Source: Xanthomonas translucens pv. translucens DSM 18974
Lineage (GTDB): Bacteria > Pseudomonadota > Gammaproteobacteria > Xanthomonadales > Xanthomonadaceae
Reading direction: 5' to 3'
DNA: 10,149 bases
Assembly (NCBI RefSeq): GCF_000331775.1
Contig: NZ_CAPJ01000460.1
Location: 1 to 10,149 of the forward strand
How positions within the stretch are numbered: position 1 is the first letter of the stretch; each line of letters opens with the position of its first letter. Positions 1 to 10,149 of the stretch are shown piece by piece. The notes beneath the pieces are model-generated. The model saw only the letters and a list, made by a program, of their open reading frames with translations, ran no database searches and was not told the DNA's origin. The position numbers were made by a program, and so were the translations under genes.

Positions 1-476
1 CTGGCCGCATTGAGGTGGCCCAGGCCGTCGAGTTCGACCAGTCCGCTGCCCCAGGCGGATGCGCAACGGCGGCTGTAGGACGGCGTCGCGTACGGATCGT
101 CGCCGCTGGCCACGATCAGGCTGGGAAACGGCAGCGGCGCCGCCGGGACCGGGACGAAGCTGGCGGCCTGCGCATGCGGAAACGCGGCGCTGTGCGGATC
201 GGGAACCGCGACCAGGAAGGCGCAGCGCGGCAGGCGTGTGGCGCGCGCGGCCCAGTGCGCGATCAGCAGGCAGCCCAGGCTGTGCGCGACCAGCAGCGGC
301 GGCGTGGCGCACGCGTCCACGCAGCGGTCGAGTGCCTGCAGCCAATCGTGCAGCTGCGGCTGCGCGAAGGAGGCCGGCTGCAGCCGCCGCATGCGCGCGT
401 CGTGCCGTTGCCAATGGGTCTGCCAGTGTTCCGGCCCCGAGTCGCCGATGCCCGGCACGATCACCACCGCTTGCAT
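1..476 (-). CDS. RBBP9/YdeN-type alpha/beta hydrolase (3' end cut by window)
   Basis: Reading from ATG at 476 down to the window edge gives 158 residues of a small serine hydrolase. The N-terminus carries PGIGDSGPEHWQ (residues 8-19), typical of the RBBP9/YdeN family (Pfam Ser_hydrolase). The nucleophile elbow AHSLGC puts the catalytic serine at 66. SGDDPY supplies the acid (D126 or D127) and GLGHLN the histidine (H154), so the triad is complete. Members are usually about 180 residues, so some 20-25 C-terminal residues lie outside the window. GGAG sits 8 bases before the ATG and supports this start. There is no signal peptide or membrane segment, so the enzyme should be cytoplasmic. Substrates in this family are poorly known; esterase-like activity is inferred. 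The gene is divergent from the Lrp-type regulator across a 125-bp gap and may be its target. Confidence 0.88.
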   Translation of the reverse strand, partial: MQAVVIVPGIGDSGPEHWQTHWQRHDARMRRLQPASFAQPQLHDWLQALDRCVDACATPPLLVAHSLGCLLIAHWAARATRLPRCAFLVAVPDPHSAAFPHAQAASFVPVPAAPLPFPSLIVASGDDPYATPSYSRRCASAWGSGLVELDGLGHLNAA

Positions 477-510
477 GCGCTACGCTCCGTTGAAGAGAGC
501 GGCCAGTGTC

Positions 511-547
511 GCGATAGATGGGTCGCCATGCCATGGCGATTTATCGC
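511..547. promoter_or_regulatory. Inverted repeat in divergent hydrolase/Lrp promoter gap
   Basis: A perfect dyad TCGCCATG-C-CATGGCGA spans 523-539. An outer pair, GCGATA (511-516) and TATCGC (542-547), flanks it slightly off-centre. It lies between two divergent genes, 35 bases from the hydrolase start and 55 bases from the regulator start. Lrp/AsnC-family proteins commonly control themselves and a divergent neighbour through dyad sites, so this is a candidate operator. The binding protein is inferred only. Confidence 0.5.
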
Positions 548-601
548 CGCAGGCGGCGGTTTGCCGATGAATCCAAGGTGCATGACGAGAGGACGAGCAG
601 C

Positions 602-1075
602 GTGGCAGCCAAACCCTGGCAGGGCGATGCCCTGGATCACGCGATTCTGGAGGCGCTGCAGTGCGACGTGCGCATCGCGCTGGCCGAGCTGGGACGGCGC
701 ATCGGCCTGTCGCAGCCGGCGATGTCCGAGCGCGTGCGCCGGCTCGAGGAACAGGGCGTGATCACCGGCTACGCGGCCCGGGTCGATCCGCGCGCGGTCG
801 GCCTGGCCACGGCCGCCATCGTCCGCCTGCGCACCACGCATGCGCAGATCGGCGCATGCCTGGCGCAGTTCGCGCAGATGCCGCAGGTGCTGGAAGTGCA
901 TCGGGTCACCGGCGAGGACTGCTTCGTGCTGCGCGTGCTGGTGCCTGCGCCGGCGCAGCTGGAGCCGATCATCGATGCCTTGGCGCGCTTCGGTGCGGTG
1001 ACCACCAGCGTGGTGTTGCGCAGCGAGGCGCCGCGCCCGATCGGTCGCGCGCTGCTGGCGTTGGCGGGGCAGTAG
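602..1075 (+). CDS. Lrp/AsnC-family transcriptional regulator
   Basis: This encodes 157 residues if GTG at 602 is the start, the usual length for the family. GAGAGGA at 587-593, 8 bases upstream, supports GTG 602 over the in-frame ATGs at 518 and 533. Those would add a 23-28-residue arginine-rich leader that lies over the palindrome. The N-terminal helix-turn-helix is at about residues 26-47 (LAELGRRIGLSQPAMSERVRRL), followed by the linker GVITGYAARVDP. The C-terminal ligand/oligomerisation (RAM) domain covers about 68-145 and includes the turn TGEDCFVLRV. Such proteins form dimers or octamers that bind dyad DNA and sense amino acids or small metabolites; the effector here is unknown. Its last 17 codons and stop recur at 3234-3287 (see the repeat entries). 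It is divergent from the hydrolase and convergent with the decayed gamma-CA gene. Confidence 0.92.
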   Translation: MAAKPWQGDALDHAILEALQCDVRIALAELGRRIGLSQPAMSERVRRLEEQGVITGYAARVDPRAVGLATAAIVRLRTTHAQIGACLAQFAQMPQVLEVHRVTGEDCFVLRVLVPAPAQLEPIIDALARFGAVTTSVVLRSEAPRPIGRALLALAGQ

Positions 1076-1094
1076 CCGCGCCGCCTTGCCTCGC

Positions 1095-1115
1095 GGCGCC
1101 GCTTGCTGCGGCGCC
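1095..1115 (+). terminator. Hairpin after the Lrp-type gene
   Basis: GGCGCCGC (1095-1102) pairs perfectly with GCGGCGCC (1108-1115) around a 5-base loop, starting 19 bases after the regulator stop. No T-run follows, so it is only terminator-like. The corresponding spot in the second repeat holds a different hairpin (3304-3320). Confidence 0.35.
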
Positions 1116-1117
1116 GG

Positions 1118-1567
1118 CGCGGCCGCGCCCAGGTAGCGGTCCTTGAGCCGCACGCAGTGCTGCGCGTAGTAGTGCAGGCGTTCGATCTCCTTGTCGCTGC
1201 GCGTGCGCGCCAGCCGCGCCGGATTGCCCAGCCACAGTTCGCGCTCGCCCACGGTCTTGCCCGGCCCGACCACCGCGCCGGCGCCGACGAAGCCGTATTT
1301 CTTCACCGTGGCGCCGTCCAGGATGCACGCGCCCATGCCGATCACGCACAGGTCCTCGATGGTGCAGGCGTGGAGGATGGTGCCGTCCTGGATGTTGCTG
1401 CGCGCGTCGATGCGCACGCGGTTGACGTCGCCGCCGATCACCGCGCCGGGCCACACCGACACGTCCTCGCCCAGTCCCACGTCGCCGATGAGGGTGCAGG
1501 CCGAATCCACGTAGGCGCGTGCGCCGAGTTGGGGTGACTTGGCGAGGAATGGGCGGATCGGGGCCAT
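1118..1567 (-). pseudogene. Decayed gamma-carbonic-anhydrase-like gene (copy 1)
   Basis: From ATG 1567 the product closely follows the intact copy at 3310-3861; I count about 130 of 150 shared positions identical. It is a left-handed beta-helix hexapeptide-repeat protein (YrdA/gamma-CA type). An in-frame loss of 29 codons at about 1369-1386 joins QDGTI directly to LHACTI. That removes two of the three metal-binding histidines (equivalents of H81, H117 and H122 of the Methanosarcina enzyme Cam) and the HVSHHSP loop. The conserved RGDVNHVRIG has become GGDVNRVRID, so the arginine matching Cam R59 is also gone. No stop appears where the other copy ends. The frame runs on antisense through the whole Lrp gene to 461, giving 368 codons. 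No good ribosome site precedes the ATG, and the presumed -10 (TAGCAT, minus strand 1616-1611) is worse than TATCAT at the intact copy. It is most likely non-functional. Confidence 0.8.
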
Positions 1568-1827
1568 GGCGGTCCGCGACGATGGCGGTCAAGGGCCGTA
1601 GCGGCAGGCGATGCTAGCCTGCGTGCCGATCCTGCCGCTGCCGAGCAGGCATGCGCAGCCAGATGCCATCGCACCGATGCGCAGCGTGGGCATGCGCGTT
1701 TTTCTCGCGCATCGGGGTGGGTCACGCGATACGTCTACGGTAAATGCAAAGCAGTGCATTGCATCGGGTCAGGCAGGCGCGGTAGCGTCCGGCCGCTGTC
1801 TTTCCTCTTTCATGCAGGAATTTCGTC
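1568..1827. other. Gene-free stretch upstream of the MFS gene
   Basis: This 260-bp stretch holds the old 5' region of the decayed gamma-CA gene at its left end and the leader of the transporter gene at its right. Within it are a 7-bp inverted repeat ATGCGCG-N7-CGCGCAT (1692-1712) and the dyad described separately at 1743-1764. I found no convincing -35/-10 pair and no credible coding sequence. Confidence 0.5.
1743..1764. promoter_or_regulatory. Dyad upstream of the MFS gene, candidate operator
   Basis: AATGCA (1743-1748) and TGCATT (1755-1760) form a perfect inverted repeat with a 6-base spacer. An overlapping wider pair, ATGCAA (1744-1749) and TTGCAT (1759-1764), uses much of the same DNA. 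It ends 63 bases before the transporter ATG, a sensible place for regulator binding. No regulator gene for it is seen in the window. Confidence 0.4.
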
Positions 1828-3135
1828 ATGCCGCATGCTGCTGTACCAGGCTCCCTCATGCAGGACCGCATGGGTGGCTTCCAATGGATGGCCGTCGGGA
1901 TTTGCGTGGTGTTGACCATGCTCGATGGCTTCGACGTGATGGTGATGGCATTCACTGCATCGCACGTGTCCGACGAGTGGCAGTTGTCCGGCAAGCTTCT
2001 TGGCGGGTTGCTCAGTGCCGGTTTGATCGGCATGGCGGTGGGCTCATTGTGTGTGGCGCCCCTGGCCGATCGTTGGGGGCGGCGGCGCCTGATCCTGGGT
2101 TGCCTGGCGATTCTCACCGTGGCCATGGGAGCCTCGGCGATGGCGCAGAATGTGCAGCAGCTTTGGATCTTGCGGGCGTTCACCGGCCTCGGCATCGGCG
2201 CGATGTTTCCCAGCATCGGGGCGATCACCGCCGAATACGCCAGCGCCAGGTGGCGCAGCGCGGCGGTGGTGCTGCAGACCACCGGCTATCCGATCGGCGC
2301 CGCGCTCGGTGGCGTGATTGCCGGCGTGCTGCTCGAACGCTGGCACGTGCACTGGCACGCGGTATTTCTGTTCGGCGCGGGGTGTTCGCTGCTGTGCATG
2401 CCGCTGGTGCTGGCGTGTTTGCCCGAGTCGCTGGATTTCCTGGTCAGCCAGCGCCCGACCAACGCGCTGGCCCAGCTCAACGCGACGTTGCTGCGCATGC
2501 GGCATGCGCCATTACCGGAGTTGCCGGCGTTGCCGCCGCGCGATGCCGTTCCACGCCAGGGTTATGCCGTGCTGTTCGTCGGTGCGATGCGCCGACGTTC
2601 GCTGTTGCTCGCACTGGCGTTCTTCTTGCACATGTTCGCATTCTTTTTCGTCCTGAGTTGGACACCCAAGTTACTGATCGCGGCCGGTATGTCGGCGCAG
2701 CAGGGGATCACCGGCGGGACCTTGCTCAACCTGGGCGGTATCGTCGGTGGCGGTGTGTTCAGTTGGCTGGCGGTGCGCTGGTCCTTGCGTTGGTCGACGC
2801 TGGGGATGTTCCTGCTGGGGGCGCTGGCGATGCTGGCTTTCAGCGCTTACAGCACGCACCTTGCGTCGGCCTTCGCGATTGCCCTGGTCATCGGTGCGGC
2901 GGTGTTCGCGGCGATGTCCGGGCTTTACGCGACCGCACCGGTGGTATTCGATGCGTCGATCCGCAGCACCGGCCTGGGCTGGGCGATCGGCATCGGTCGC
3001 ATCGGCGCGATCCTGTCGCCGCCGACGGTGGGGTGGCTGCTGGACGGCGGCTGGTCGCCCCAGCACCTGTATCTGCTGTGCACGGTGCCGTTGCTCCTGG
3101 CGGCGGTGGCGCTGCTGGCCCTGCGCACGCGTTGA
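1828..3135 (+). CDS. MFS transporter, aromatic acid:H+ symporter (AAHS) type
   Basis: This encodes 435 residues, the usual size of 12-helix MFS permeases of the inner membrane. TM1 holds DGFD (33-36), the acidic motif of the AAHS family (PcaK, BenK, MhpT type). The loop between TM2 and TM3 has the MFS signature APLADRWGRRR (77-87). PESLDFLV (199-206) follows TM6, and TM11 carries RSTGLGWAIGIGRIGAI (379-395), also typical of AAHS. The likely job is proton-driven uptake of an aromatic or related acid; the substrate cannot be read from the sequence. AGGA lies 8 bases before ATG 1828; ATG 1858 is an alternative. Base composition is visibly lower in GC than the flanks (36 of 60 bases in 1861-1920, against 44 of 60 in 5041-5100). 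With the flanking direct repeats this suggests acquisition by transfer. The reading frame is intact, so it is probably functional. Confidence 0.88.
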   Translation: MPHAAVPGSLMQDRMGGFQWMAVGICVVLTMLDGFDVMVMAFTASHVSDEWQLSGKLLGGLLSAGLIGMAVGSLCVAPLADRWGRRRLILGCLAILTVAMGASAMAQNVQQLWILRAFTGLGIGAMFPSIGAITAEYASARWRSAAVVLQTTGYPIGAALGGVIAGVLLERWHVHWHAVFLFGAGCSLLCMPLVLACLPESLDFLVSQRPTNALAQLNATLLRMRHAPLPELPALPPRDAVPRQGYAVLFVGAMRRRSLLLALAFFLHMFAFFFVLSWTPKLLIAAGMSAQQGITGGTLLNLGGIVGGGVFSWLAVRWSLRWSTLGMFLLGALAMLAFSAYSTHLASAFAIALVIGAAVFAAMSGLYATAPVVFDASIRSTGLGWAIGIGRIGAILSPPTVGWLLDGGWSPQHLYLLCTVPLLLAAVALLALRTR

Positions 3136-3155
3136 GCCGCGCGCTGCGCGCCGCG

Positions 3156-3227
3156 CTTGGGGATCGGCAGATGCATCTTGAACCCGAGCGGGCCGGTGTC
3201 CTGCATCGTCCCCACCGGCAGCTGCCA
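3156..3227 (-). pseudogene. Scrap of a PQQ-dependent glucose/quinate/shikimate dehydrogenase-like gene
   Basis: On the minus strand these 24 codons begin WQLPV and continue GTMQDTGPLGFKMHLPIP before losing family likeness at KRGAQ. From memory, this resembles the conserved W-x-x-P-x-GT-x-x-D-x-x-P segment near the C-terminal end of membrane-bound PQQ-dependent dehydrogenases (Gcd/QuiA type). No start, stop or other part of such a gene is present. The scrap lies between the MFS stop (3135) and the duplicated Lrp tail (3234). It is probably a deletion remnant of a gene once convergent with the transporter. Such enzymes oxidise sugars or quinate/shikimate in the periplasm, which fits an aromatic or hydroaromatic acid transporter next door. 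The match is short and was not tested by a search. Confidence 0.45.
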
Positions 3228-3233
3228 TGCGAT

Positions 3234-3287
3234 AGCGAGGCGCCGCGCCCGATCGGCCGCACGGTGCTGGCGTTGGCGGCGCAGTAG
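3234..3287 (+). pseudogene. Duplicated 3' end of the Lrp/AsnC-type gene
   Basis: These 54 bases encode SEAPRPIGRTVLALAAQ and a TAG stop, matching the last 17 residues of the regulator at 602-1075 (SEAPRPIGRALLALAGQ). Four bases differ. No upstream part of the regulator is present: the sequence changes abruptly at 3233, next to the dehydrogenase-like scrap. It is a non-coding leftover that marks the left end of the second repeat. Confidence 0.85.
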
Positions 3288-3303
3288 CGGTGCCGGCGTG
3301 CCG

Positions 3304-3320
3304 CGCCGCCTACGGCGGCG
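3304..3320. terminator. Hairpin at the gamma-CA stop codon
   Basis: CGCCGCC (3304-3310) pairs perfectly with GGCGGCG (3314-3320) around a 3-base loop. It covers the TAG stop (3312-3310) of the minus-strand gamma-CA gene. No T-run follows on either strand. It may end transcription from the right or just reflect GC-rich sequence. Confidence 0.3.
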
Positions 3321-3861
3321 ACGCAGCGGCCGCGGCCAGGTAGCGATCCTTCAGGCGCACGTAGTGCTGCGCCGAGTAGTGCAGGCTCTCGATCTCCCTG
3401 TCGCTGAGCATGCGTGCCTTGCGGGCGGGATTGCCCAGCCAAAGCTCGCCTTCGCCGACGGTCTTGCCGGGGCCGACCACCGCGCCGGCGCCGACGAAGC
3501 CGTACTTCTTCACCGTGGCCCCGTCCAGGATGCACGCGCCCATGCCGATCAGGCACAGGTCCTCGATGGTGCAGGCGTGGATGATGGTGCCGTGGCCGAC
3601 GGTCACGTCCGCGCCGATCAGGGTCGGGTAGCCGGCCGCGTTGAACGGGCTGTGGTGGCTGACGTGGATGATGGTGCCGTCCTGGATGTTGCTGCGCGCG
3701 CCGATGCGCACGTGGTTGACGTCGCCGCGGATCACCGCGCCCGGCCACACCGACACGTCCTCGCCCAGTACCACGTCGCCGATGAGGGTGCAGGCCGGAT
3801 CCACGTAGACGCGTGCGCCCAGCTGCGGCGCCTTGTCCAGGAACGGACGGATCGGGTTCAC
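3310..3861 (-). CDS. Gamma-carbonic-anhydrase family protein (YrdA type), intact copy
   Basis: This encodes 183 residues from GTG 3861, with GGAG 6 bases upstream. The ATG at 3866 is out of frame and hits a stop at once, and longer in-frame starts would add a tail unlike the family. The protein is a left-handed beta-helix of hexapeptide repeats that normally works as a trimer. RGDVNHVRIG (45-54) gives the arginine and aspartate matching Cam R59 and D61. QDGTIIH (60-66) and VGHGTIIH (88-95) supply the three metal ligands H66, H90 and H95. All key residues are present, so metal-dependent (Zn or Fe) CO2/bicarbonate chemistry is possible, though many YrdA-type proteins have unproven activity. The C-terminal helix (about 153-175) is typical. 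A possible -10, TATCAT, lies at 3918-3913 on the minus strand. The gene is convergent with the duplicated Lrp tail, 22 bases apart. Confidence 0.92.
   Translation of the reverse strand: MNPIRPFLDKAPQLGARVYVDPACTLIGDVVLGEDVSVWPGAVIRGDVNHVRIGARSNIQDGTIIHVSHHSPFNAAGYPTLIGADVTVGHGTIIHACTIEDLCLIGMGACILDGATVKKYGFVGAGAVVGPGKTVGEGELWLGNPARKARMLSDREIESLHYSAQHYVRLKDRYLAAAAASPP
3576..3680. repeat. 18-bp direct repeat inside the gamma-CA gene, 87 bp apart
   Basis: CGTGGATGATGGTGCCGT occurs at 3576-3593 and again at 3663-3680. The 87-bp period is 29 codons. The decayed copy has exactly one such element, at 1369-1386 (one base different), and lacks the 87 bp between. Slippage between the two elements therefore explains the deletion there. 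Confidence 0.9.
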
Positions 3862-4171
3862 GGCATTCTCCGAGGGAGTGGCGGGGGGCAGCGGACTGCG
3901 GCGCGGCTGTCGATGATAGCGCCTGGCTGCCAAGCGCTTTGGGCGCATGCCTGACGGACCGGGGAGATGGGAGATGCCCGCACTGGCGCGGCCGCTGGCG
4001 CGGTTGATGAGGGGGATCGTCGTGCGCGTAGGCGCGGCACGGCTGTCCATAGGCCAGGGGCGCACGCGATGCAGGCCAGGGCATCGCCATCGGGCCGGGC
4101 CAGGATGCCGCGCGCCGCATCGGCGGTCGCGGTCCGGCGAGCCCGTCGCGCGAGCTCGCCGGAGGCGTTTG
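3862..4171. other. Gene-free stretch between gamma-CA and the small basic gene
   Basis: About 310 bases with no credible gene on either strand; the open frames here are GC-rich shadows. The left part should be the leader and promoter of the minus-strand gamma-CA gene (possible -10 TATCAT at 3918-3913, no clear -35). The right end holds the hairpin at 4134-4162. Nothing else was recognised. Confidence 0.5.
4134..4162 (-). terminator. Strong hairpin after the small basic gene
   Basis: CCGGCGAGC (4134-4142) and GCTCGCCGG (4154-4162) pair perfectly over 9 bp around an 11-base loop. On the minus strand it begins 9 bases after the stop of the small lysine-rich gene, the expected place for a terminator. 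It lacks a following T-run, so it could also be a stabilising 3' hairpin. Confidence 0.45.
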
Positions 4172-4267
4172 CTACTTCTTCTTTTCCTTCTTGGCCGCGC
4201 GCTTTTCCTTCAGCGTCTTGGTCGGCTGCTTCTTGTCGCTCTTCTTCTGATCCAAGCCCTTGCTCAT
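4172..4267 (-). CDS. Small lysine-rich conserved protein, 31 aa
   Basis: ATG 4267 to TAG 4172 encodes 31 residues, 13 of them lysine, beginning MSKGLDQKKSDKK and ending EKRAAKKEKKK. AGAGGG lies 4 bases before the ATG. The frame opens further upstream (ATG 4381), but that extension is alanine-rich and lacks a ribosome site. From memory, very similar MSKG-starting lysine-rich miniproteins are common in proteobacteria with no assigned function. There is no signal, membrane segment or cysteine. The charge suggests RNA, DNA or ribosome association, which is inference only. Codons rich in A (AAG/AAA) make it locally AT-richer than its surroundings. It is divergent from the RIO kinase gene, and a strong hairpin follows it. 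Confidence 0.75.
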   Translation of the reverse strand: MSKGLDQKKSDKKQPTKTLKEKRAAKKEKKK

Positions 4268-4367
4268 GACACCCTCTGGACGATTGCACTGTGGATTGCC
4301 GGCTGCGGCCGCCGTGGCGGCGATCGCGGCGACCACTTTACTCCGCTGGCGGCCGGCCAGGCCGCCG

Positions 4368-4403
4368 TTGTCGCCCGGCATGCACCCACGGTTGGGTCAT
4401 AAT
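4368..4403 (+). promoter_or_regulatory. Possible promoter of the RIO kinase gene
   Basis: TTGTCG (4368-4373) and CATAAT (4398-4403) are 24 bases apart, the long spacing reported for some Xanthomonas promoters. The -10-like element is 32 bases before ATG 4436. A GGCGGCC/GGCCGCC hairpin (4348-4366) lies just upstream. This call is by eye only. Confidence 0.3.
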
Positions 4404-4435
4404 CCGGTTTTCCCCTTCAAGGTCCCCCGCGTCCG

Positions 4436-5293
4436 ATGAAAACCCCCCAGGGCCTGCAGCCGCTGATCGAGGACGGCGTCATCGACAGCGTGCTGCGTCC
4501 GCTCAAGAGTGGCAAGGAGGCCGCCGTGTACGTGGTCCAGGCCGGCGATGACGTGTTGTGCGCCAAGGTCTACAAGGACATGGCGCAGCGTAGCTTCCAG
4601 GCCCGCGTGCAGTACCAGGAGGGCCGCAAAGTGCGCGGCAGCCGTCAGGCGCGGGCGATGGGCAAGGCGACCAAGTTCGGCCGCCGCGAGCAAGAGGCCG
4701 CGTGGAAGGACACCGAGGCCAACACCCTGTACCAGCTGGTGGATGCCGGCGTGCACGTGCCGCAGCCGCGCGGCTACTTCCACGGCGTGCTGCTGATGGA
4801 TCTGGTCACCGATGCAGACGGGCAGAGCGCGCCGCGGCTGGGCGAAGTGGAGCTGGAGCCGGAGCAGGCGCGCGCGTTCCATGCGCAGCTGATCGGCGAC
4901 GTGGTGAAGATGCTGTGCCTGGGTCTGGTGCACGGCGACCTGTCCGAATACAACGTGCTGGTCGCCGCCGCTGGCCCGGTGCTGATCGACTTCCCGCAGG
5001 TGGTCAGCGCCGCCGGCAACAATGCCGCGCGCGACATGCTGCTGCGCGACGTGCACAACCTGCGCGACTGCCTGGGCCGCGCCGCGCCCGAACTCAACGA
5101 CACCTACTACGGCGAAGAGATGTGGGCGCTGTACGAGCAGGGCGAGCTGCGCCCGGACAGCGCGCTCAGCGGCCGCTTCGTGTTCGACACCCACCGCGCC
5201 GACGTGCGCGCCGTGCGCGATTCGATCGAGGATGCGCGGCAGGAAGCGATCATTCGCCAGCAGGGCCGCGAGGCCGCCGCCGACGAGGATTGA
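4436..5293 (+). CDS. RIO1-family serine protein kinase/ATPase
   Basis: This encodes 285 residues with the full RIO kinase core. The nucleotide loop is SGKEAAVYVV (25-34), and the catalytic lysine is K44 in CAKVYK. The RIO-specific loop of basic residues follows at about 52-92 (RSFQARVQYQEGRKVRG and onward). The catalytic loop is LVHGDLSEYN (164-173) with D168 and N173, and the metal aspartate is D185 in LIDFPQ. All catalytic residues are present, so it should bind ATP and autophosphorylate. RIO proteins act in ribosome maturation in eukaryotes and archaea; the bacterial role is unsettled. The C-terminal 60 residues are charged and helical-looking. ATG 4436 starts the family-like sequence; only a weak AAGG lies 13 bases upstream. 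It is divergent from the small lysine-rich gene and probably transcribed alone, since a hairpin follows. Confidence 0.9.
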   Translation: MKTPQGLQPLIEDGVIDSVLRPLKSGKEAAVYVVQAGDDVLCAKVYKDMAQRSFQARVQYQEGRKVRGSRQARAMGKATKFGRREQEAAWKDTEANTLYQLVDAGVHVPQPRGYFHGVLLMDLVTDADGQSAPRLGEVELEPEQARAFHAQLIGDVVKMLCLGLVHGDLSEYNVLVAAAGPVLIDFPQVVSAAGNNAARDMLLRDVHNLRDCLGRAAPELNDTYYGEEMWALYEQGELRPDSALSGRFVFDTHRADVRAVRDSIEDARQEAIIRQQGREAAADED

Positions 5294-5345
5294 GCGCGGC
5301 GGCAGTGCCTCCGCGGCCTGCCGAACACGTACCCAGCGCCGCGCC

Positions 5346-5370
5346 GCGCCGCCGATCGCATCGGCGGCGC
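5346..5370 (+). terminator. Hairpin after the RIO kinase gene
   Basis: GCGCCGCCGAT (5346-5356) pairs perfectly over 11 bp with ATCGGCGGCGC (5360-5370) around a CGC loop. It starts 52 bases after the RIO stop. It is very stable but has no T-run, so factor-assisted or inefficient termination is possible. Confidence 0.45.
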
Positions 5371-5517
5371 CACTGCCGCGGCCTGCAGCTCTGGCCATCG
5401 TCGTCACCGCTTGCCGCGGCCACGCAGTGAGCGCGGCCGCGGCATGACGCTGCACCGGCATGCGCTCGGCAAAGGCGCGCGATCGCGCAGCGCAAACGGC
5501 AATATGCGTATCCCGAT

Positions 5518-5535
5518 GCGATACCAAGGTATCGC
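5518..5535. promoter_or_regulatory. 18-bp perfect palindrome, candidate efflux repressor operator
   Basis: GCGATACC-AA-GGTATCGC is a perfect inverted repeat ending 148 bases before the adaptor ATG. Its size and shape suit a TetR- or MarR-type repressor, the usual local control of RND pumps. No such regulator is encoded in the window, so it would act from elsewhere. Confidence 0.5.
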
Positions 5536-5543
5536 CCGCAATA

Positions 5544-5564
5544 CCAATCTTTCGCCAATCTTTC
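5544..5564. repeat. Tandem CCAATCTTTC direct repeat, one helical turn apart
   Basis: CCAATCTTTC occurs at 5544-5553 and again at 5555-5564, an 11-base period. Such phased pairs can be binding sites for response regulators or similar dimers. It lies just downstream of the 18-bp palindrome in the efflux leader. Function is inferred. Confidence 0.45.
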
Positions 5565-5683
5565 TGCGCGCACACGCAAGTTGAAGTGGCAGCTGACTGC
5601 CGTTTTCGTCGCGCTGTATCGCGGGAATACATTTCGTGTAGCGTTGCGCGCTTCGATCTCCCCACCCCCACGATTTCTCGCTT

Positions 5684-6868
5684 ATGTTCGACGCCTTCGC
5701 CGCGCCTCGTTGTTTCATTTTCTGTGGATCCGTTGTTGCGCTGGCGATGGCGGCGGGGTGTTCGTCCACGGCGCAACCGCCGCCGCCGATCAAGGTCGGC
5801 ACCCTGGCGGTGACCGCGCAGACCATGCCGGTGGAGCAGGCCTTGCCCGGCCGCACCGTCGCCTTCGAGGTCTCCGATGTGCGCCCGCAGGTCAACGGTC
5901 TGGTGCGCAAGCGGCTGTTCACCGAAGGCCAGGACGTGGTGGCCGGACAGGTGCTCTACCAGATCGATCCTGCGCCGTACCAGGCCGCCTACGACAGCGC
6001 CCGCGGGCAACTCGCGCAGGCCCAGGCCGCGGCGCTCGCGGCGCGGCCCAAGGCCGAGCGCTACCGCACCCTGGTCGCGCTGGATGCGGCCAGCAAGCAG
6101 GATGCCGACGATGCGCAGGCCGCCTTGAAGGAAGCCGAAGCCAACGTGGTGGCGGCGCAGGCAGCGTTGCGGGCGGCGCGCATCAATCTCGACTACACCC
6201 GCGTGCTGGCGCCGATCTCCGGCACCATCGGCAGCTCGGCCTACAGCGCCGGCGCGCTGGTGACCGCGCAACAGGACGCGGCGCTGACCAGGATCCAGCG
6301 TCTGGACCCGATCTACCTGGACGTGAGCCAGTCCAGCACGCAGCTGCTGGCGCTGCGCGAGCAACTCGACGCCGGCCGCATCAAGGCCAGCGACGGCAAG
6401 GTCGCGGTGCGGGTGCGGCTGGAGGACGGCCGCTTCTATCCGCATCCCGGCACGCTGGAATTCGTCGGCACCTCGGTCGATCCCGGCACCGGCGGGGTGA
6501 CCTTGCGCGTGGTCGTGCCCAATCCGCAGCACCTGCTGCTGCCCGGCATGTACCTGCGCGCGCTGCTGCCGTTGGCCAGCGACCCGGGCGCGATCCTGGT
6601 GCCGCAACAGGCGGTGACCCGCGATGCCAAGGGCGAACCGCTGGTGAAGCTGCTCGACGCGCACGACCGGGTGCTGGAGCGGCGCATCCGCACCGGCGAT
6701 ACGGTGGGCCATGATTGGTTGGTGCAGTCCGGACTCAAGCCGGGCGAGCGGCTGATCGTGGTCAACGGCAGCCGCGCCGAGATCGGCAAGCCGGTCGTGC
6801 CGTATGCGGTCAGCGCCGCGCAGCTCGAGGCCGCGCCCGCGGTGCCGGGCGACGCCCAGGCCGACTGA
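5684..6868 (+). CDS. RND efflux periplasmic adaptor lipoprotein (AcrA/MexA type)
   Basis: This encodes 394 residues, the usual adaptor length. The N-terminus has a hydrophobic signal and a lipobox ending AAGC, so C26 should be lipidated and anchor the protein at the inner membrane, facing the periplasm. Two lipoyl half-motifs flank the hairpin: VRPQVNGLVRKRLFTEGQ (66-83) with VLYQIDPAPY (90-99), and LDYTRVLAPISGTIG (169-183). The alanine/glutamine-rich stretch 98-168 is the coiled-coil hairpin that meets the outer-membrane channel. Beta-barrel and membrane-proximal domains follow (about 205-375). The protein couples the RND pump to the channel. ATG 5684 is the first in-frame start after a stop in the leader, but no Shine-Dalgarno sequence precedes it. 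It is the first gene of the operon, with 9 bases between its stop and the pump ATG. Confidence 0.93.
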   Translation: MFDAFAAPRCFIFCGSVVALAMAAGCSSTAQPPPPIKVGTLAVTAQTMPVEQALPGRTVAFEVSDVRPQVNGLVRKRLFTEGQDVVAGQVLYQIDPAPYQAAYDSARGQLAQAQAAALAARPKAERYRTLVALDAASKQDADDAQAALKEAEANVVAAQAALRAARINLDYTRVLAPISGTIGSSAYSAGALVTAQQDAALTRIQRLDPIYLDVSQSSTQLLALREQLDAGRIKASDGKVAVRVRLEDGRFYPHPGTLEFVGTSVDPGTGGVTLRVVVPNPQHLLLPGMYLRALLPLASDPGAILVPQQAVTRDAKGEPLVKLLDAHDRVLERRIRTGDTVGHDWLVQSGLKPGERLIVVNGSRAEIGKPVVPYAVSAAQLEAAPAVPGDAQAD

Positions 6869-6877
6869 GGAGCTGCC

Positions 6878-9800
6878 ATGTCGCGTTTCTTCGTCAACCA
6901 CCCGGTGGTGGCCTGGGTCATGGCCATCGTCATCGTCCTGGTCGGCATGCTGGCCATCCACGCGCTGCCGATCGAGCGCTATCCGCAGATGGCGCCGCCG
7001 ACCATCACCGTGCGCGCCGCCTATACCGGCGCCTCGGCGCAGACCGTGGAGAACACCGTCACCCAGCTGATCGAGCAGTCGCAGCAGAGCCTGGACCACC
7101 TGCTGTACATGACCTCGACCAGCGCCTCGGACGGCACCGCGCAGGTCAACCTGGTGTTCGAGACCGGCACCAATGCCGATACCGCGCAGGTGCAGGTGCA
7201 GAACCAGCTGCAGTCGGTGATGTCGGTGCTGCCGCAGGCGGTGCAGCAGAACGGCCTGGTCATCACCAAGTCCAGCGGCTCGCTGTTCGAGGTGGTGGCG
7301 TTCACCTCCGACGACGGCAGCATGGACAACTTCGATGTCGCCAACTACATGGAATCGAACATCGACGACCAGATCAGCCGGGTCAGCGGCGTGGGCAACA
7401 TCCAGCCGATGGGCTCGGAGTACGCCATGCGCATCTGGCTGGATCCGGAGAAGCTGCGCAAGTACGCGCTGATGCCCTCGGACGTGGAGAACGCGCTGCA
7501 GGCGCAGAACACCGATGTGTCGGCCGGCGAGATCGGCGGCCAGCCGGCGCCGCGCGGGCAACGCCTGGATGCGACCGTGACCACGCGCAGCCGCCTGCAC
7601 ACGCCGGCGCAGTTCGGCGCGATCGTGCTCAAGAGCGGCCCCGGCGGCGCCGCGGTGCACCTGTCCGACGTGGCCAGGATCGGCCTGGGTCCGGAAACCT
7701 ACGACAGCATCACCCGTTTCAACGGCAAGCCCTCGGCTTCGCTGGGCATCGAGTTGAACGCCGACGCCAATGCGGTGGAAACGTCAAAGGCGATCGACGC
7801 GCGCCTGCAGGAACTCAAGCAGTACTGGCCGCACGGCTACAGCTACCACATCGCCTTCAGCACCACGCCGTTCGTGACCACCTCGATCAAGGAAGTGGTC
7901 ATTACCCTGATCGAAGCGGTGCTGCTGGTGGTGGCGGTGATGTATCTGTTCCTGCAGAACTGGCGCGCCACGCTGGTCCCGACCATCGCCGTGCCGGTGG
8001 TGCTGATGGGCACCTTCGGCGTGCTGGCCGCGTTCGGCTACTCGATCAACACCTTGACCATGTTCGCGATGGTGCTGGCGATCGGCCTGCTGGTGGACGA
8101 CGCCATCGTGGTGGTGGAGAACGTGGAGCGGGTCATGAGCCAGGAAGGGCTGCCGCCGAAGGAGGCGACGCTGCGTTCGATGCAGCAGATCGGCGGCGCG
8201 CTGGTCGGCATCGTGCTGGTGCTGACCGCGGTGTTCGTGCCGATGGCCTTCTTCAACGGCGTCACCGGGGTCATCTACCGGCAGTTCTCGATCACCATCG
8301 CCGCCTCGATGATCCTGTCGGTGCTGGTGGCGATGACCCTGACCCCGGCGCTGTGCGTGACCATCCTCAAGCCGCTGCACCAGGGCGAGGCGCCGATCGG
8401 CTCGCACGGCCGCCTGGGCCGGTTCTTCGCCTGGTTCAACACGCGCTTCCGCCAGTTGACCGAGCGCTACCGTGCGCTGGTCGAGCGGGTGCTGGGCCGG
8501 CGCGCGCTGAGCCTGCTCGCCTACGCGCTGCTGCTGGGCGTCACCGGCGTGCTGTTGTGGCGCCTGCCCGGCGCGTTCCTGCCCGACGAGGACGAGGGCA
8601 TGCTCAACGTGCTGGTCAAGCTGCCGGCCGGCTCCACCCTGGAGCAGACCCTGGCGGTGACCGACCGCCTGACCAAGGCCGCGCTGCACGAGCCGGGCGT
8701 GCGCTCGGTGCTGTCCTCGGCCGGCTTCAGCGTGACCGGCGCCGGCCAGAACGTCGGCATGGCCTTCGTCCGCCTCAAGGACTGGGACGACCGCGAGGAC
8801 GATGCCGACACCATCGCCGCGCATCTCAACCAGGCCCTGGCCGACGTGCCCGACGCGGAGCTGTTCGTGACCTCGCCGCCGGCCATCAGCGGCCTCGGCG
8901 ACGCCTCCGGTTTCACCTTCGAACTGATGGATTACGAAGGTGCCGGCCACGCCGCCCTGGTGGACGCGCGCGACAAGCTGCTGCGCCTGGCCGGGCATGA
9001 TCCCACGCTGCGCGACGTGCGCTACGCCAGCCTGGAAGACGCGCCGGTCTATGCGGTCAAGATCGACGACGACAAGGCGCAGGCGCAGGGCGTGGACCCG
9101 GGCGACATCAACGCCACGCTCAACAGCGCGCTCGGCGGCGACTTCGTCAACAACTTCATCTACAAGGGCCGCATCAAGAAAGTGTTCGTGCAGGGCGACG
9201 CCGAGGCGCGCATGGCACCGCAGGACCTGCAGCGCTGGACGGTGCGCAACGCCAGCGGCGACATGGTGCCGATGTCCGCCTTCACCACCTCGCACTGGAC
9301 CAGCGCGCCGGCCGCGCTGGAGCGCTACAACGGCGTGTCGGCGATGGAGCTCACCGGCCAGGCGGTGGCGGGCGTCAGCTCCGGCGCGGCGATGGACGCG
9401 ATGGCTGCACTGAGCAAGCAGCTGCCGCACGGCTTCGGCTATGCGTGGTCGGACATGGCCTACCAGGAGAAGCTGTCGGCCAACCAGGCGCCGGCGCTGT
9501 ACGCGATCTCGCTGCTGTTCGTGTTCCTGTGCCTGGTGGCGCTGTACGAAAGCTGGACGATCCCGTTCGCGGTGATGCTGGCGGTGCCGGTGGGCGTGTT
9601 CGGCGCGGCGCTGTTGATGACCGTGCGCGGCCTGCAGAACGACGTGTATTTCCAGGTCGGGCTGCTGACCACGGTCGGCCTGGCGGCCAAGAACGGCATC
9701 CTGATCGTGGAGTTCGCGCGCGAGCTGGAGCAGCGCGGCGAACCCCTGCTGGCTGCCACCCTGCACGCGGTGCAGATGCGCCTGCGGCCGATCCTGATGA

Positions 9801-10003
9801 CCTCGCTGGCGTTCCTGCTCGGCGTGCTGCCGCTGGTGTTCAGTCACGGCGCCGGCTCGGCGGCGCGCCATTCGCTGGGCACCGGCGTCACCGGCGGCAC
9901 GCTGGCCTCGATCACCCTGGGCTTGTTCTTCGTGCCGTTGTTCTACGTGATCGTGCGCAGCGTGTTTCCCGGCAGCAAGCATCCGCTGGAGGCCACGCCA
10001 TGA
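6878..10003 (+). CDS. RND multidrug efflux pump, HAE1 family (AcrB/MexB type)
   Basis: This encodes 1041 residues, close to AcrB. The protein should be a 12-helix inner-membrane trimer with two large periplasmic loops that exports hydrophobic or amphiphilic compounds by proton antiport. TM1 begins FFVNHPVVAWVMAIVIV (4-20). The proton-relay pair D407-D408 (LLVDDAIVVVENVERVM) keeps the exact AcrB numbering, and K938 in LAAKNGILIVEFA matches AcrB K940. RLRPILMTSLAFLLGVLPL gives the conserved TM11 segment. The porter-domain motif GAGQNVGMAFVRLKDW is also typical of HAE1 pumps. The Shine-Dalgarno AGGAG (6868-6872) overlaps the adaptor stop and is 5 bases before ATG 6878. The stop overlaps the start of the channel gene. 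Substrate range cannot be told from sequence alone. Confidence 0.96.
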   Translation: MSRFFVNHPVVAWVMAIVIVLVGMLAIHALPIERYPQMAPPTITVRAAYTGASAQTVENTVTQLIEQSQQSLDHLLYMTSTSASDGTAQVNLVFETGTNADTAQVQVQNQLQSVMSVLPQAVQQNGLVITKSSGSLFEVVAFTSDDGSMDNFDVANYMESNIDDQISRVSGVGNIQPMGSEYAMRIWLDPEKLRKYALMPSDVENALQAQNTDVSAGEIGGQPAPRGQRLDATVTTRSRLHTPAQFGAIVLKSGPGGAAVHLSDVARIGLGPETYDSITRFNGKPSASLGIELNADANAVETSKAIDARLQELKQYWPHGYSYHIAFSTTPFVTTSIKEVVITLIEAVLLVVAVMYLFLQNWRATLVPTIAVPVVLMGTFGVLAAFGYSINTLTMFAMVLAIGLLVDDAIVVVENVERVMSQEGLPPKEATLRSMQQIGGALVGIVLVLTAVFVPMAFFNGVTGVIYRQFSITIAASMILSVLVAMTLTPALCVTILKPLHQGEAPIGSHGRLGRFFAWFNTRFRQLTERYRALVERVLGRRALSLLAYALLLGVTGVLLWRLPGAFLPDEDEGMLNVLVKLPAGSTLEQTLAVTDRLTKAALHEPGVRSVLSSAGFSVTGAGQNVGMAFVRLKDWDDREDDADTIAAHLNQALADVPDAELFVTSPPAISGLGDASGFTFELMDYEGAGHAALVDARDKLLRLAGHDPTLRDVRYASLEDAPVYAVKIDDDKAQAQGVDPGDINATLNSALGGDFVNNFIYKGRIKKVFVQGDAEARMAPQDLQRWTVRNASGDMVPMSAFTTSHWTSAPAALERYNGVSAMELTGQAVAGVSSGAAMDAMAALSKQLPHGFGYAWSDMAYQEKLSANQAPALYAISLLFVFLCLVALYESWTIPFAVMLAVPVGVFGAALLMTVRGLQNDVYFQVGLLTTVGLAAKNGILIVEFARELEQRGEPLLAATLHAVQMRLRPILMTSLAFLLGVLPLVFSHGAGSAARHSLGTGVTGGTLASITLGLFFVPLFYVIVRSVFPGSKHPLEATP

Positions 10004-10149
10004 GCGCACGGTCGTTGCGCCTGCTGGCGCTGTCCTGCTGCACGGCGCTGGCCGCGTGCAGCATGGCCCCGCACTACACGCGCCCGGACGCGCCGGTGCC
10101 GCTGCGGTTCGACACCGCGGGCAGCGCCCCGTCCGCGGCCGGCGCCGCG
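10000..10149 (+). CDS. Efflux outer-membrane channel lipoprotein (OprM/NodT type), 5' part
   Basis: The first 50 codons lie in the window. The ATG (10000-10002) overlaps the pump stop as ATGA, and GGAGG lies 7 bases upstream, so translation is probably coupled. A hydrophobic signal (LRLLALSCCTALAAC) ends in an LAAC lipobox, with C20 the likely lipidated residue. APHYTRPDAPVP follows, the hallmark N-terminus of outer-membrane factors that complete RND tripartite pumps. The rest, normally about 450-480 residues with a TolC-like barrel and helical tunnel, lies beyond the right edge. It would form the exit duct for the adaptor and pump encoded upstream. Confidence 0.88.
   Translation, partial: MSARSLRLLALSCCTALAACSMAPHYTRPDAPVPLRFDTAGSAPSAAGAA

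What the first reader, a model, noticed from the sequence alone, without database searches (positions are those of the whole stretch)
1022..3861. Transporter cassette flanked by direct repeats of an Lrp tail plus a gamma-CA gene
The order is Lrp (whole) - gamma-CA (decayed) - MFS - dehydrogenase-like scrap - Lrp (last 17 codons) - gamma-CA (whole). The two Lrp-tail/gamma-CA segments are in direct orientation, 2212 bp apart. Without the cassette the locus would simply be Lrp converging on gamma-CA. This fits either a Campbell-type integration of DNA that carried its own Lrp/gamma-CA homology, or a tandem duplication followed by deletion. No transposase or integrase is seen. The roughly 87% protein identity between the copies argues for a diverged donor or an old event.
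Basis: partly seen in the sequence, partly recalled or inferred. Interest (0 to 1): 0.72.

Follow-up and report, generated by a model that had tools for sequence, protein, structure and literature searches.

The report
Foreign gene block flanked by repeats
In a cereal-associated Xanthomonas, a transporter gene sits between one broken and one apparently intact copy of a carbonic anhydrase gene, and the patchwork inside the intact copy suggests that DNA from a related species was added here by ordinary recombination; it is a readable scar of a known kind of event, not a new kind of element.

Summary
The repeat is real: Lrp tail plus gamma-CA (CA) at 1022-1579 recurs at 3234-3873, 87-88% identical; copy 1 lacks 29 codons. 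The window is X. translucens or very close (MFS protein 100%). Of 20 held genus genomes, one, G008 (96-97%), has the block, minus Lrp and part of copy 1; six have CA beside RIO without a transporter.

Copy 2 is mosaic: 12 of 12 clade-diagnostic sites at 3324-3639 are sister-clade type, 11 of 11 at 3760-3936 own-clade type; 0 of 13 genomes left out in turn show such a switch. The MFS is albilineans-type and the quiA remnant sacchari-type. Best reading: additive, Campbell-like integration of DNA from another Xanthomonas lineage. Against it: short-half AU tests miss 0.05, the right part of copy 1 is ambiguous, and a poor third record (L093) has a mixed copy 2.

The cassette looks like the remains of a quinate/shikimate locus. 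G008 has no AroD or PcaH hit, yet MFS looks maintained (dN/dS 0.10). Known kind of event, unusually readable.

The parts
518..1075 (+). Lrp/AsnC-family regulator gene, whole; own-clade type
   Evidence: PF13404, PF01037; tree with G009 and G017 100/100 in 7 rows; dS to G009 0.13 over 605-1075
1022..1097 (+). first copy of the Lrp-tail repeat
   Evidence: D4, 87%
1128..1567 (-). gamma-CA copy 1, pseudogene: 29 codons lost at about 1370, own stop lost; own-clade type on the Lrp side, not own-clade type at the five diagnostic sites 1535-1567
1370..1387 (.). deletion joint of copy 1: one repeat left, 87 bp lost relative to copy 2 (repeats around 3577 and 3664)
1535..3639 (.). inferred foreign tract (CA 5' end, promoter region, MFS, quiA remnant, Lrp tail, CA 3' half); left edge uncertain (1511-1535 by sites, but noncoding sites to 1725 are mixed), right edge 3639-3760
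   Evidence: diagnostic sites; albilineans-type CA-MFS block; sacchari-type quiA
1568..1827 (.). intergenic region between copy 1 and MFS, same layout as in the albilineans-type genomes G004 and G006
   Evidence: continuous match window 1360-3139 to G004 (87%) and 1360-3133 to G006 (86%)
1828..3135 (+). MFS transporter gene, aromatic acid:H+ symporter-like, intact
   Evidence: PF07690; TIGR00895 best hit but below its cut-off; 100% X. translucens, 88% X. albilineans; dN/dS 0.10 versus G008
3160..3233 (-). remnant of a PQQ quinate/shikimate/glucose dehydrogenase gene (called quiA here); longer (211 nt) in G008
3234..3309 (+). second copy of the Lrp tail, fused to the quiA remnant
3310..3861 (-). 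gamma-CA copy 2, intact; 3' half sacchari-type, 5' half own-clade type
3639..3760 (.). crossover interval in copy 2
4436..5293 (+). RIO1-family kinase gene, right flank, own-clade type
   Evidence: PF01163; RIO tree

Best explanation
This is a partial duplication left by additive homologous recombination between species. An ancestor of the X. translucens group had the simple locus Lrp-CA-RIO. DNA from another lineage of the genus, on the albilineans/sacchari side, carried CA-MFS-quiA' already joined, by an illegitimate junction, to an Lrp tail plus CA. It arrived either as a circle or as a linear piece of an already duplicated locus. Exchange inside the CA gene inserted it without removing anything. 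The left CA copy is then resident 3' part plus donor 5' end, and the right copy is donor 3' half plus resident 5' half. Afterwards the right copy stayed the working gene, the left copy lost 29 codons between short repeats and decayed, the quiA remnant shrank, and the MFS gene was kept. Shown: the repeat, the mosaic of copy 2, own-clade flanks, the albilineans-type MFS, the sacchari-type quiA remnant, and the decay of copy 1. Inferred: a single donor, one event, the left edge of the tract, the form of the DNA, transformation as the route, and that copy 2 is active.
For: Sites without the cassette: G009 matches window 1-1562, 3234-3860 (the same single CA) and 4132-10148, and G017 likewise up to RIO. 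Copy 2: 12 of 12 diagnostic sites S-type at 3324-3639 and 11 of 11 A-type at 3760-3936; G008 copy 2 is the same. Left half with the S clade 96/100, right half with the A clade 100/99. Leave-one-out control: 0 of 13 genomes shows a switch. Copy 1, left part: 89-95% to the 8 A genomes, 83-91% to the 5 S genomes, 87% to copy 2; copy 2, left part: 93.5-95% to 4 of 5 S genomes (G015 85%) and 85-89% to A. The block 1360-3139 is continuous with the albilineans-type genomes. MFS dS to them is 0.25 and 0.30, against 0.39-0.67 for RIO, MFP, RND and CA. The quiA remnant of G008 is 81-84% to five S-type and 71-72% to two A-type quiA genes. At the quiA/Lrp joint the two homologies overlap by at most 3 nt.
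Against: Single-copy AU tests on the short halves miss 0.05 (A+copy2 left p 0.10; S+copy2 right p 0.074; S+copy1 left p 0.21), and A+copy1+copy2 left gives p 0.064. Copy 1 is A-type at 1466-1511, where a strict single crossover at the copy-2 breakpoint predicts donor states, so a conversion tract or a second exchange is needed; and of five noncoding sites at 1598-1725 three are A and two other. The 5' half of copy 1 cannot be assigned to A or S. Beyond 3936 the copy-2 side gives S, A, other, other, S, S at six poorly aligned noncoding sites (3986-4020), left out of the count. In L093, an indel-rich third record, the left half of copy 2 is mixed (6 S, 6 A) and copy 1 is mixed too: sequence errors, or later conversion between the copies. 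No sampled genome carries both the MFS type and the quiA type of the tract. The Lrp tail does not separate A from S.
Confidence: 0.65

Rival explanations
1. Tandem duplication inside the own lineage (Lrp-CA-MFS-quiA doubled), loss of the second MFS-quiA, then a separate conversion of the 3' half of copy 2 by sister-clade DNA.
For: A duplication would give the same quiA/Lrp joint. Larger CA...MFS...quiA loci exist in the own clade (G003, G007; in G020 quiA lies elsewhere). The 5' halves of the two copies group weakly, 72/97, when G008 copy 1 is left out. The mixed copies of L093 show that states may move between copies.
Against: It needs at least three events. The MFS is not the own-clade type (74% nt to G007, 90% to G004), nor is the quiA remnant. 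The RIO side of copy 2 lines up with the transporter-free genomes G016 and G019, apart from about 270-290 bp that the window lacks.
Confidence: 0.23
2. Vertical retention: the CA-MFS block is an old state of the genus, kept only in translucens and albilineans, and copy 2 was added to it.
For: The albilineans-type genomes have the same CA-MFS layout.
Against: MFS dS to albilineans-type genomes is lower than that of the four other genes measured against both, and at MFP/RND a 100/100 split parts the window's clade from albilineans plus S (unrooted tree). RND dS (0.39-0.41) is not far above, so this is not decisive.
Confidence: 0.1
3. Cargo of an integrative element, transposon or plasmid whose mobility genes are gone.
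For: A discrete cassette between direct repeats.
Against: No integrase or transposase in the 8 scanned window proteins; the repeats are parts of host genes with a switch of type inside one of them; no relative of CA in viral contigs. Of the 20 plasmid rows listed out of 589 records, only one covers the locus, and that record looks chimeric.
Confidence: 0.02

Closest known systems
Campbell-type (single-crossover) additive integration (general knowledge)
   Same: Donor segment between two direct copies of the shared gene, at least one of them a donor/resident hybrid; the resident gene is not lost
   Different: Between natural species, without a known circle; the inferred breakpoints in the two copies differ by some 45-190 bp
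Transformation-made merodiploids of Streptococcus pneumoniae (PMC3784515; outline, abstract and found passages seen)
   Same: Duplication arising from exchange with incoming DNA that is partly repeated in the host
   Different: Those are about 100-900 kb and arise by unequal crossing-over between repeats; this one is 2.2 kb, shared by two lineages and partly decayed
Homology-facilitated illegitimate recombination (seen only as titles in that paper's reference list; otherwise recalled)
   Same: One homologous and one illegitimate joint
   Different: Here both outer joints lie in CA homology; the illegitimate joint is inside the tract
pca locus of X. campestris with the PcaK/BenK-like Xcc0349 a few locus numbers away (PMC4682078; passages seen)
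   Same: Aromatic-acid transporter close to the pca genes, as in G003 and G007 here
   Different: In G008 no PcaH or AroD is found

Membership tests
Campbell-type additive integration | insert flanked by direct copies of the target gene | tested here: met
Campbell-type additive integration | uninterrupted target in relatives | tested here: met
   G009 and G017
Campbell-type additive integration | flanking copies are reciprocal donor/resident hybrids | tested here: inconclusive
   clear for copy 2 in the window and G008, mixed in L093; copy 1 clear on the left, ambiguous on the right
Campbell-type additive integration | same crossover point in both copies | tested here: inconclusive
   1511-1535 in copy 1 (equivalent to 3805-3829) against 3639-3760 in copy 2; a conversion tract is needed
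Campbell-type additive integration | circular donor molecule | not testable with these tools
   no donor sequence found
integrase- or transposase-borne element | integrase or transposase gene with the cassette | tested here: not met
   Pfam on 8 window proteins
gamma carbonic anhydrase (copy 2) | full-length YrdA-like sequence | tested here: met
   residues 3-177 against 3r1w and 4-177 against 3tio, E 7e-57 and 2e-54; NF050158 best hit at 147.6 bits, below its 250-bit cut-off
gamma carbonic anhydrase (copy 1) | complete coil set with metal ligands | tested here: not met
   29 codons missing; ligand motif recalled
aromatic acid:H+ symporter (TIGR00895) | score above the curated cut-off | tested here: not met
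   338.8 against 418.55 bits, best hit all the same; the S-clade MFS of L121 scores 352.9

The most novel reading that the evidence does not exclude
The transporter was moved between species as a stand-alone gain and is kept for a role without the catabolic pathway: for example uptake of plant shikimate or quinate straight into aromatic biosynthesis, or control of hydroxybenzoate levels, in a lineage whose sister genome has lost AroD, PcaH and the local quiA.
Probability: 0.2. Interest if true: 0.5.

Novelty: new member of a known kind. Interest (0 to 1): 0.33.

Why it matters
Additive integration is usually inferred from its product alone. Here relatives with transporter-free, full and reduced loci allow one end of the exchange to be placed within about 120 bp inside a gene, and suggest how transporter alleles can move between plant-associated Xanthomonas lineages without an evident mobile element. 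It also leaves a testable question about an apparently pathway-less transporter.

Tried and rejected
Own-genome search: no whole genome is held for the window, so copies elsewhere in this strain could not be checked. Viral contigs: 10 pattern matches, none a relative of CA. Plasmids: of 20 rows listed out of 589 records, one covers the locus, and only the end of that record is shown to be Xanthomonas-like. An own-lineage duplication and vertical retention of the MFS were weighed and ranked lower. The AU tests that force the other copy out of the clade (p 0.0002 or less) look stronger than the fairer single-copy tests, which miss 0.05; the latter are the ones to go by. The idea that the 87-bp deletion was made by the crossover itself (mispaired repeats) was dropped: copy 2 has no matching 87-bp gain. 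The 136 extra bp in G008 between scrap and Lrp tail looked like an unknown piece but proved to be more quiA. The listings of four paper searches showed no paper on this arrangement.
Full report
Observation. The direct repeat is as described: 1022-1097 to 3234-3309, 1093-1392 to 3300-3599 and 1364-1579 to 3658-3873, at 87-88%. The step in spacing from 2207 to 2294 is an 87-bp in-frame gap in copy 1, between short direct repeats that copy 2 still carries twice. Pfam and NCBIfam hits fit Lrp/AsnC, a hexapeptide gamma-CA, an MFS transporter, a RIO kinase and an RND pump pair. The MFS protein is 100% identical to one named X. translucens pv. translucens, 98-99% to X. translucens pv. graminis, X. 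graminis and X. cerealis proteins, 88% to X. albilineans, and the next best is 69%. The window is therefore X. translucens or very close to it; this rests on that one protein.

Relatives. The CA protein brought in 80 named loci. Whole genomes of the genus held here number 20, and all have a match. From I sort them as follows. One (G008) has the block CA1 5' part-MFS-quiA'-Lrp tail-CA2-RIO, but has lost Lrp and the 3' half of copy 1. Six (G005, G009, G016, G017, G018, G019) have CA followed by the RIO gene with no transporter. Ten have a larger locus with a type I dehydroquinase (AroD) and another MFS type, and a PQQ dehydrogenase gene: about 6 kb from CA in seven sacchari-like genomes, called S here (G001, G002, G010, G012, G013, G014, G015), about 30 kb away in G003 and G007, and elsewhere in the chromosome in G020. 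Two (G004 X. albilineans, G006 Xanthomonas sp. GPE 39) have CA-MFS-MFP-RND. One (G011) has CA followed by other genes. G003 and G007 carry pca genes between MFS and the PQQ dehydrogenase. The cassette thus looks like what is left of a quinate/shikimate to protocatechuate locus. The names quiA, pca and quinate are inferred from family hits (TIGR03074, TIGR01093 and TIGR02422 above their cut-offs in such genomes); TIGR03074 does not tell glucose from quinate or shikimate.

The window's own clade. In an unrooted tree of MFP plus the start of RND (13 rows), window and G008 lie with G003, G007, G009, G016 and G019 (clade A), split from albilineans plus S at 100/100; where the root lies is not shown. 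RIO parts A, with the window, from albilineans at 100/100 (12 rows), and Lrp joins the window with G009 and G017 at 100/100 (7 rows).

Mosaic. Diagnostic sites are those where at least 75% of 8 A genomes and 75% of 5 S genomes agree within but differ between the groups. Copy 2 of the window is S at 12 of 12 sites from 3324 to 3639 and A at 11 of 11 from 3760 to 3936; G008 copy 2 is the same. If these 23 states were in random order, a perfect sort would have odds of about 2 in 1.35 million (binomial; my arithmetic). Six further sites at 3986-4020, noncoding and poorly aligned, read S, A, other, other, S, S and were not counted. Left out in turn, the 8 A genomes have 11-12 of 12 left-half sites A and 8-10 right-half sites A; the 5 S genomes have 11-12 left-half S with 1-3 A, and 10-11 right-half S with 1-4 A; none switches type along the gene. 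In L093, the indel-rich third record, the left half of copy 2 reads 6 S and 6 A, with the A states mostly at 3410-3427, and copy 1 is mixed too; the DNA there resembles copy 1 over a short stretch, so this may be sequence error or conversion between copies. Trees: left half of copy 2 (3310-3659) with S 96/100, right half (3661-3861) with A 100/99, but each AU test alone misses significance (0.10 and 0.074). Copy 1 reads A at 13 of 15 sites from 563 to 1265 (one S, one other), A at four sites 1466-1511, A at none of five sites 1535-1567 (three S, two other), and A at three of five noncoding sites 1598-1725. Identity: left part of copy 1 89-95% to A, best G009 at 94.6%, and 83-91% to S; left part of copy 2 93.5-95% to G001, G002, G012 and G014, 85% to G015, 85-89% to A; right part of copy 2 94-97% to A and 89-91% to S.

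The tract. Window 1360-3139 matches G004 without break (87%), and 1360-3133 matches G006 (86%). MFS synonymous distance to them is 0.25 and 0.30, against 0.39-0.41 for RND, 0.50-0.52 for CA, 0.53-0.62 for RIO and 0.60-0.67 for MFP. RND is not far above, so this is supportive and not decisive. MFS proteins of translucens and albilineans form one clade at 100/100, apart from S-type, A-type and other Xanthomonas MFS. The quiA remnant in its longer G008 form is 81-84% to five S-type and 71-72% to two A-type genes. The joint to the Lrp tail shows at most 3 nt of overlap between the two homologies, so it looks like an illegitimate join.

Mechanism. A donor-like tract inside own-clade flanks, ending inside CA copies, is what additive exchange gives. 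Because copy 1 stays A-type beyond the copy-2 breakpoint, either a conversion tract of some 45-190 bp accompanied one crossover, or there were two exchanges with a donor that was already duplicated. Natural transformation is plausible: clade I Xanthomonas encode the DNA-binding pilin FimT3, but their competence has not been assessed (PMC9956873, passages seen). Transformation is known to make merodiploids in S. pneumoniae (PMC3784515, abstract and passages seen).

After the event. G008 copy 1 has a changed start, a frameshift and a deletion that also removed Lrp; the 5' parts of copy 1 differ by 6.5% over 199 nt between window and G008, while copy 2 is identical over 552 nt. MFS has dN 0.005 and dS 0.051 between the two (ratio 0.10), which suggests that it is kept; this rests on about two dozen substitutions (98.3% identity over about 1305 nt). 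G008 has no AroD or PcaH hit at E 0.001 and only the remnant of the local quiA, plus one full PQQ dehydrogenase elsewhere. The albilineans-type genomes keep PcaH but have no AroD hit. What the lone transporter does is open.

Verdict. Real and mostly explained, a new case of a known kind. It is unusual in how well one end of the exchange can be read.

Noticed in passing
window 3262-3930 against L116 (G008): 669 bp without a single difference, while the whole alignment averages 2.6% (227 mismatches in 8815 columns); copy 2 has probably been shared or homogenised recently between the two lineages.
   Followed up: partly
L093 9993-14164 (NZ_CP045288.2, Curtobacterium plasmid pCff1): The end of this 'complete plasmid' is an indel-rich, Xanthomonas translucens-like stretch with the same Lrp-CA-MFS-quiA'-Lrp tail-CA layout, while the first 12 kb carry other genes: probably a chimeric assembly.
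   Followed up: partly
MFS position near CA in Xanthomonas: Four separate MFS lineages occupy this place (S, A, other Xanthomonas, translucens/albilineans); the S type sits with Pseudoxanthomonas proteins, the A type weakly with Stenotrophomonas-like ones: allele replacement at one locus seems repeated.
   Followed up: partly
L116 7200-7420: G008 has a deletion joining an upstream gene into copy 1, which removes Lrp; a 13-base stretch also found in copy 1 (window 1241-1253) lies at the joint (by eye).
   Followed up: no
window 461-1567 (-), 4397-7660 (-), 7784-10009 (-): Very long antisense open frames (368, 1087 and 741 aa), likely a by-product of high G+C.
   Followed up: no
window 4172-4381 (-): 69-aa lysine-rich ORF without a Pfam hit, between CA and RIO; a relative lies at the same place in L005.
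   Followed up: no
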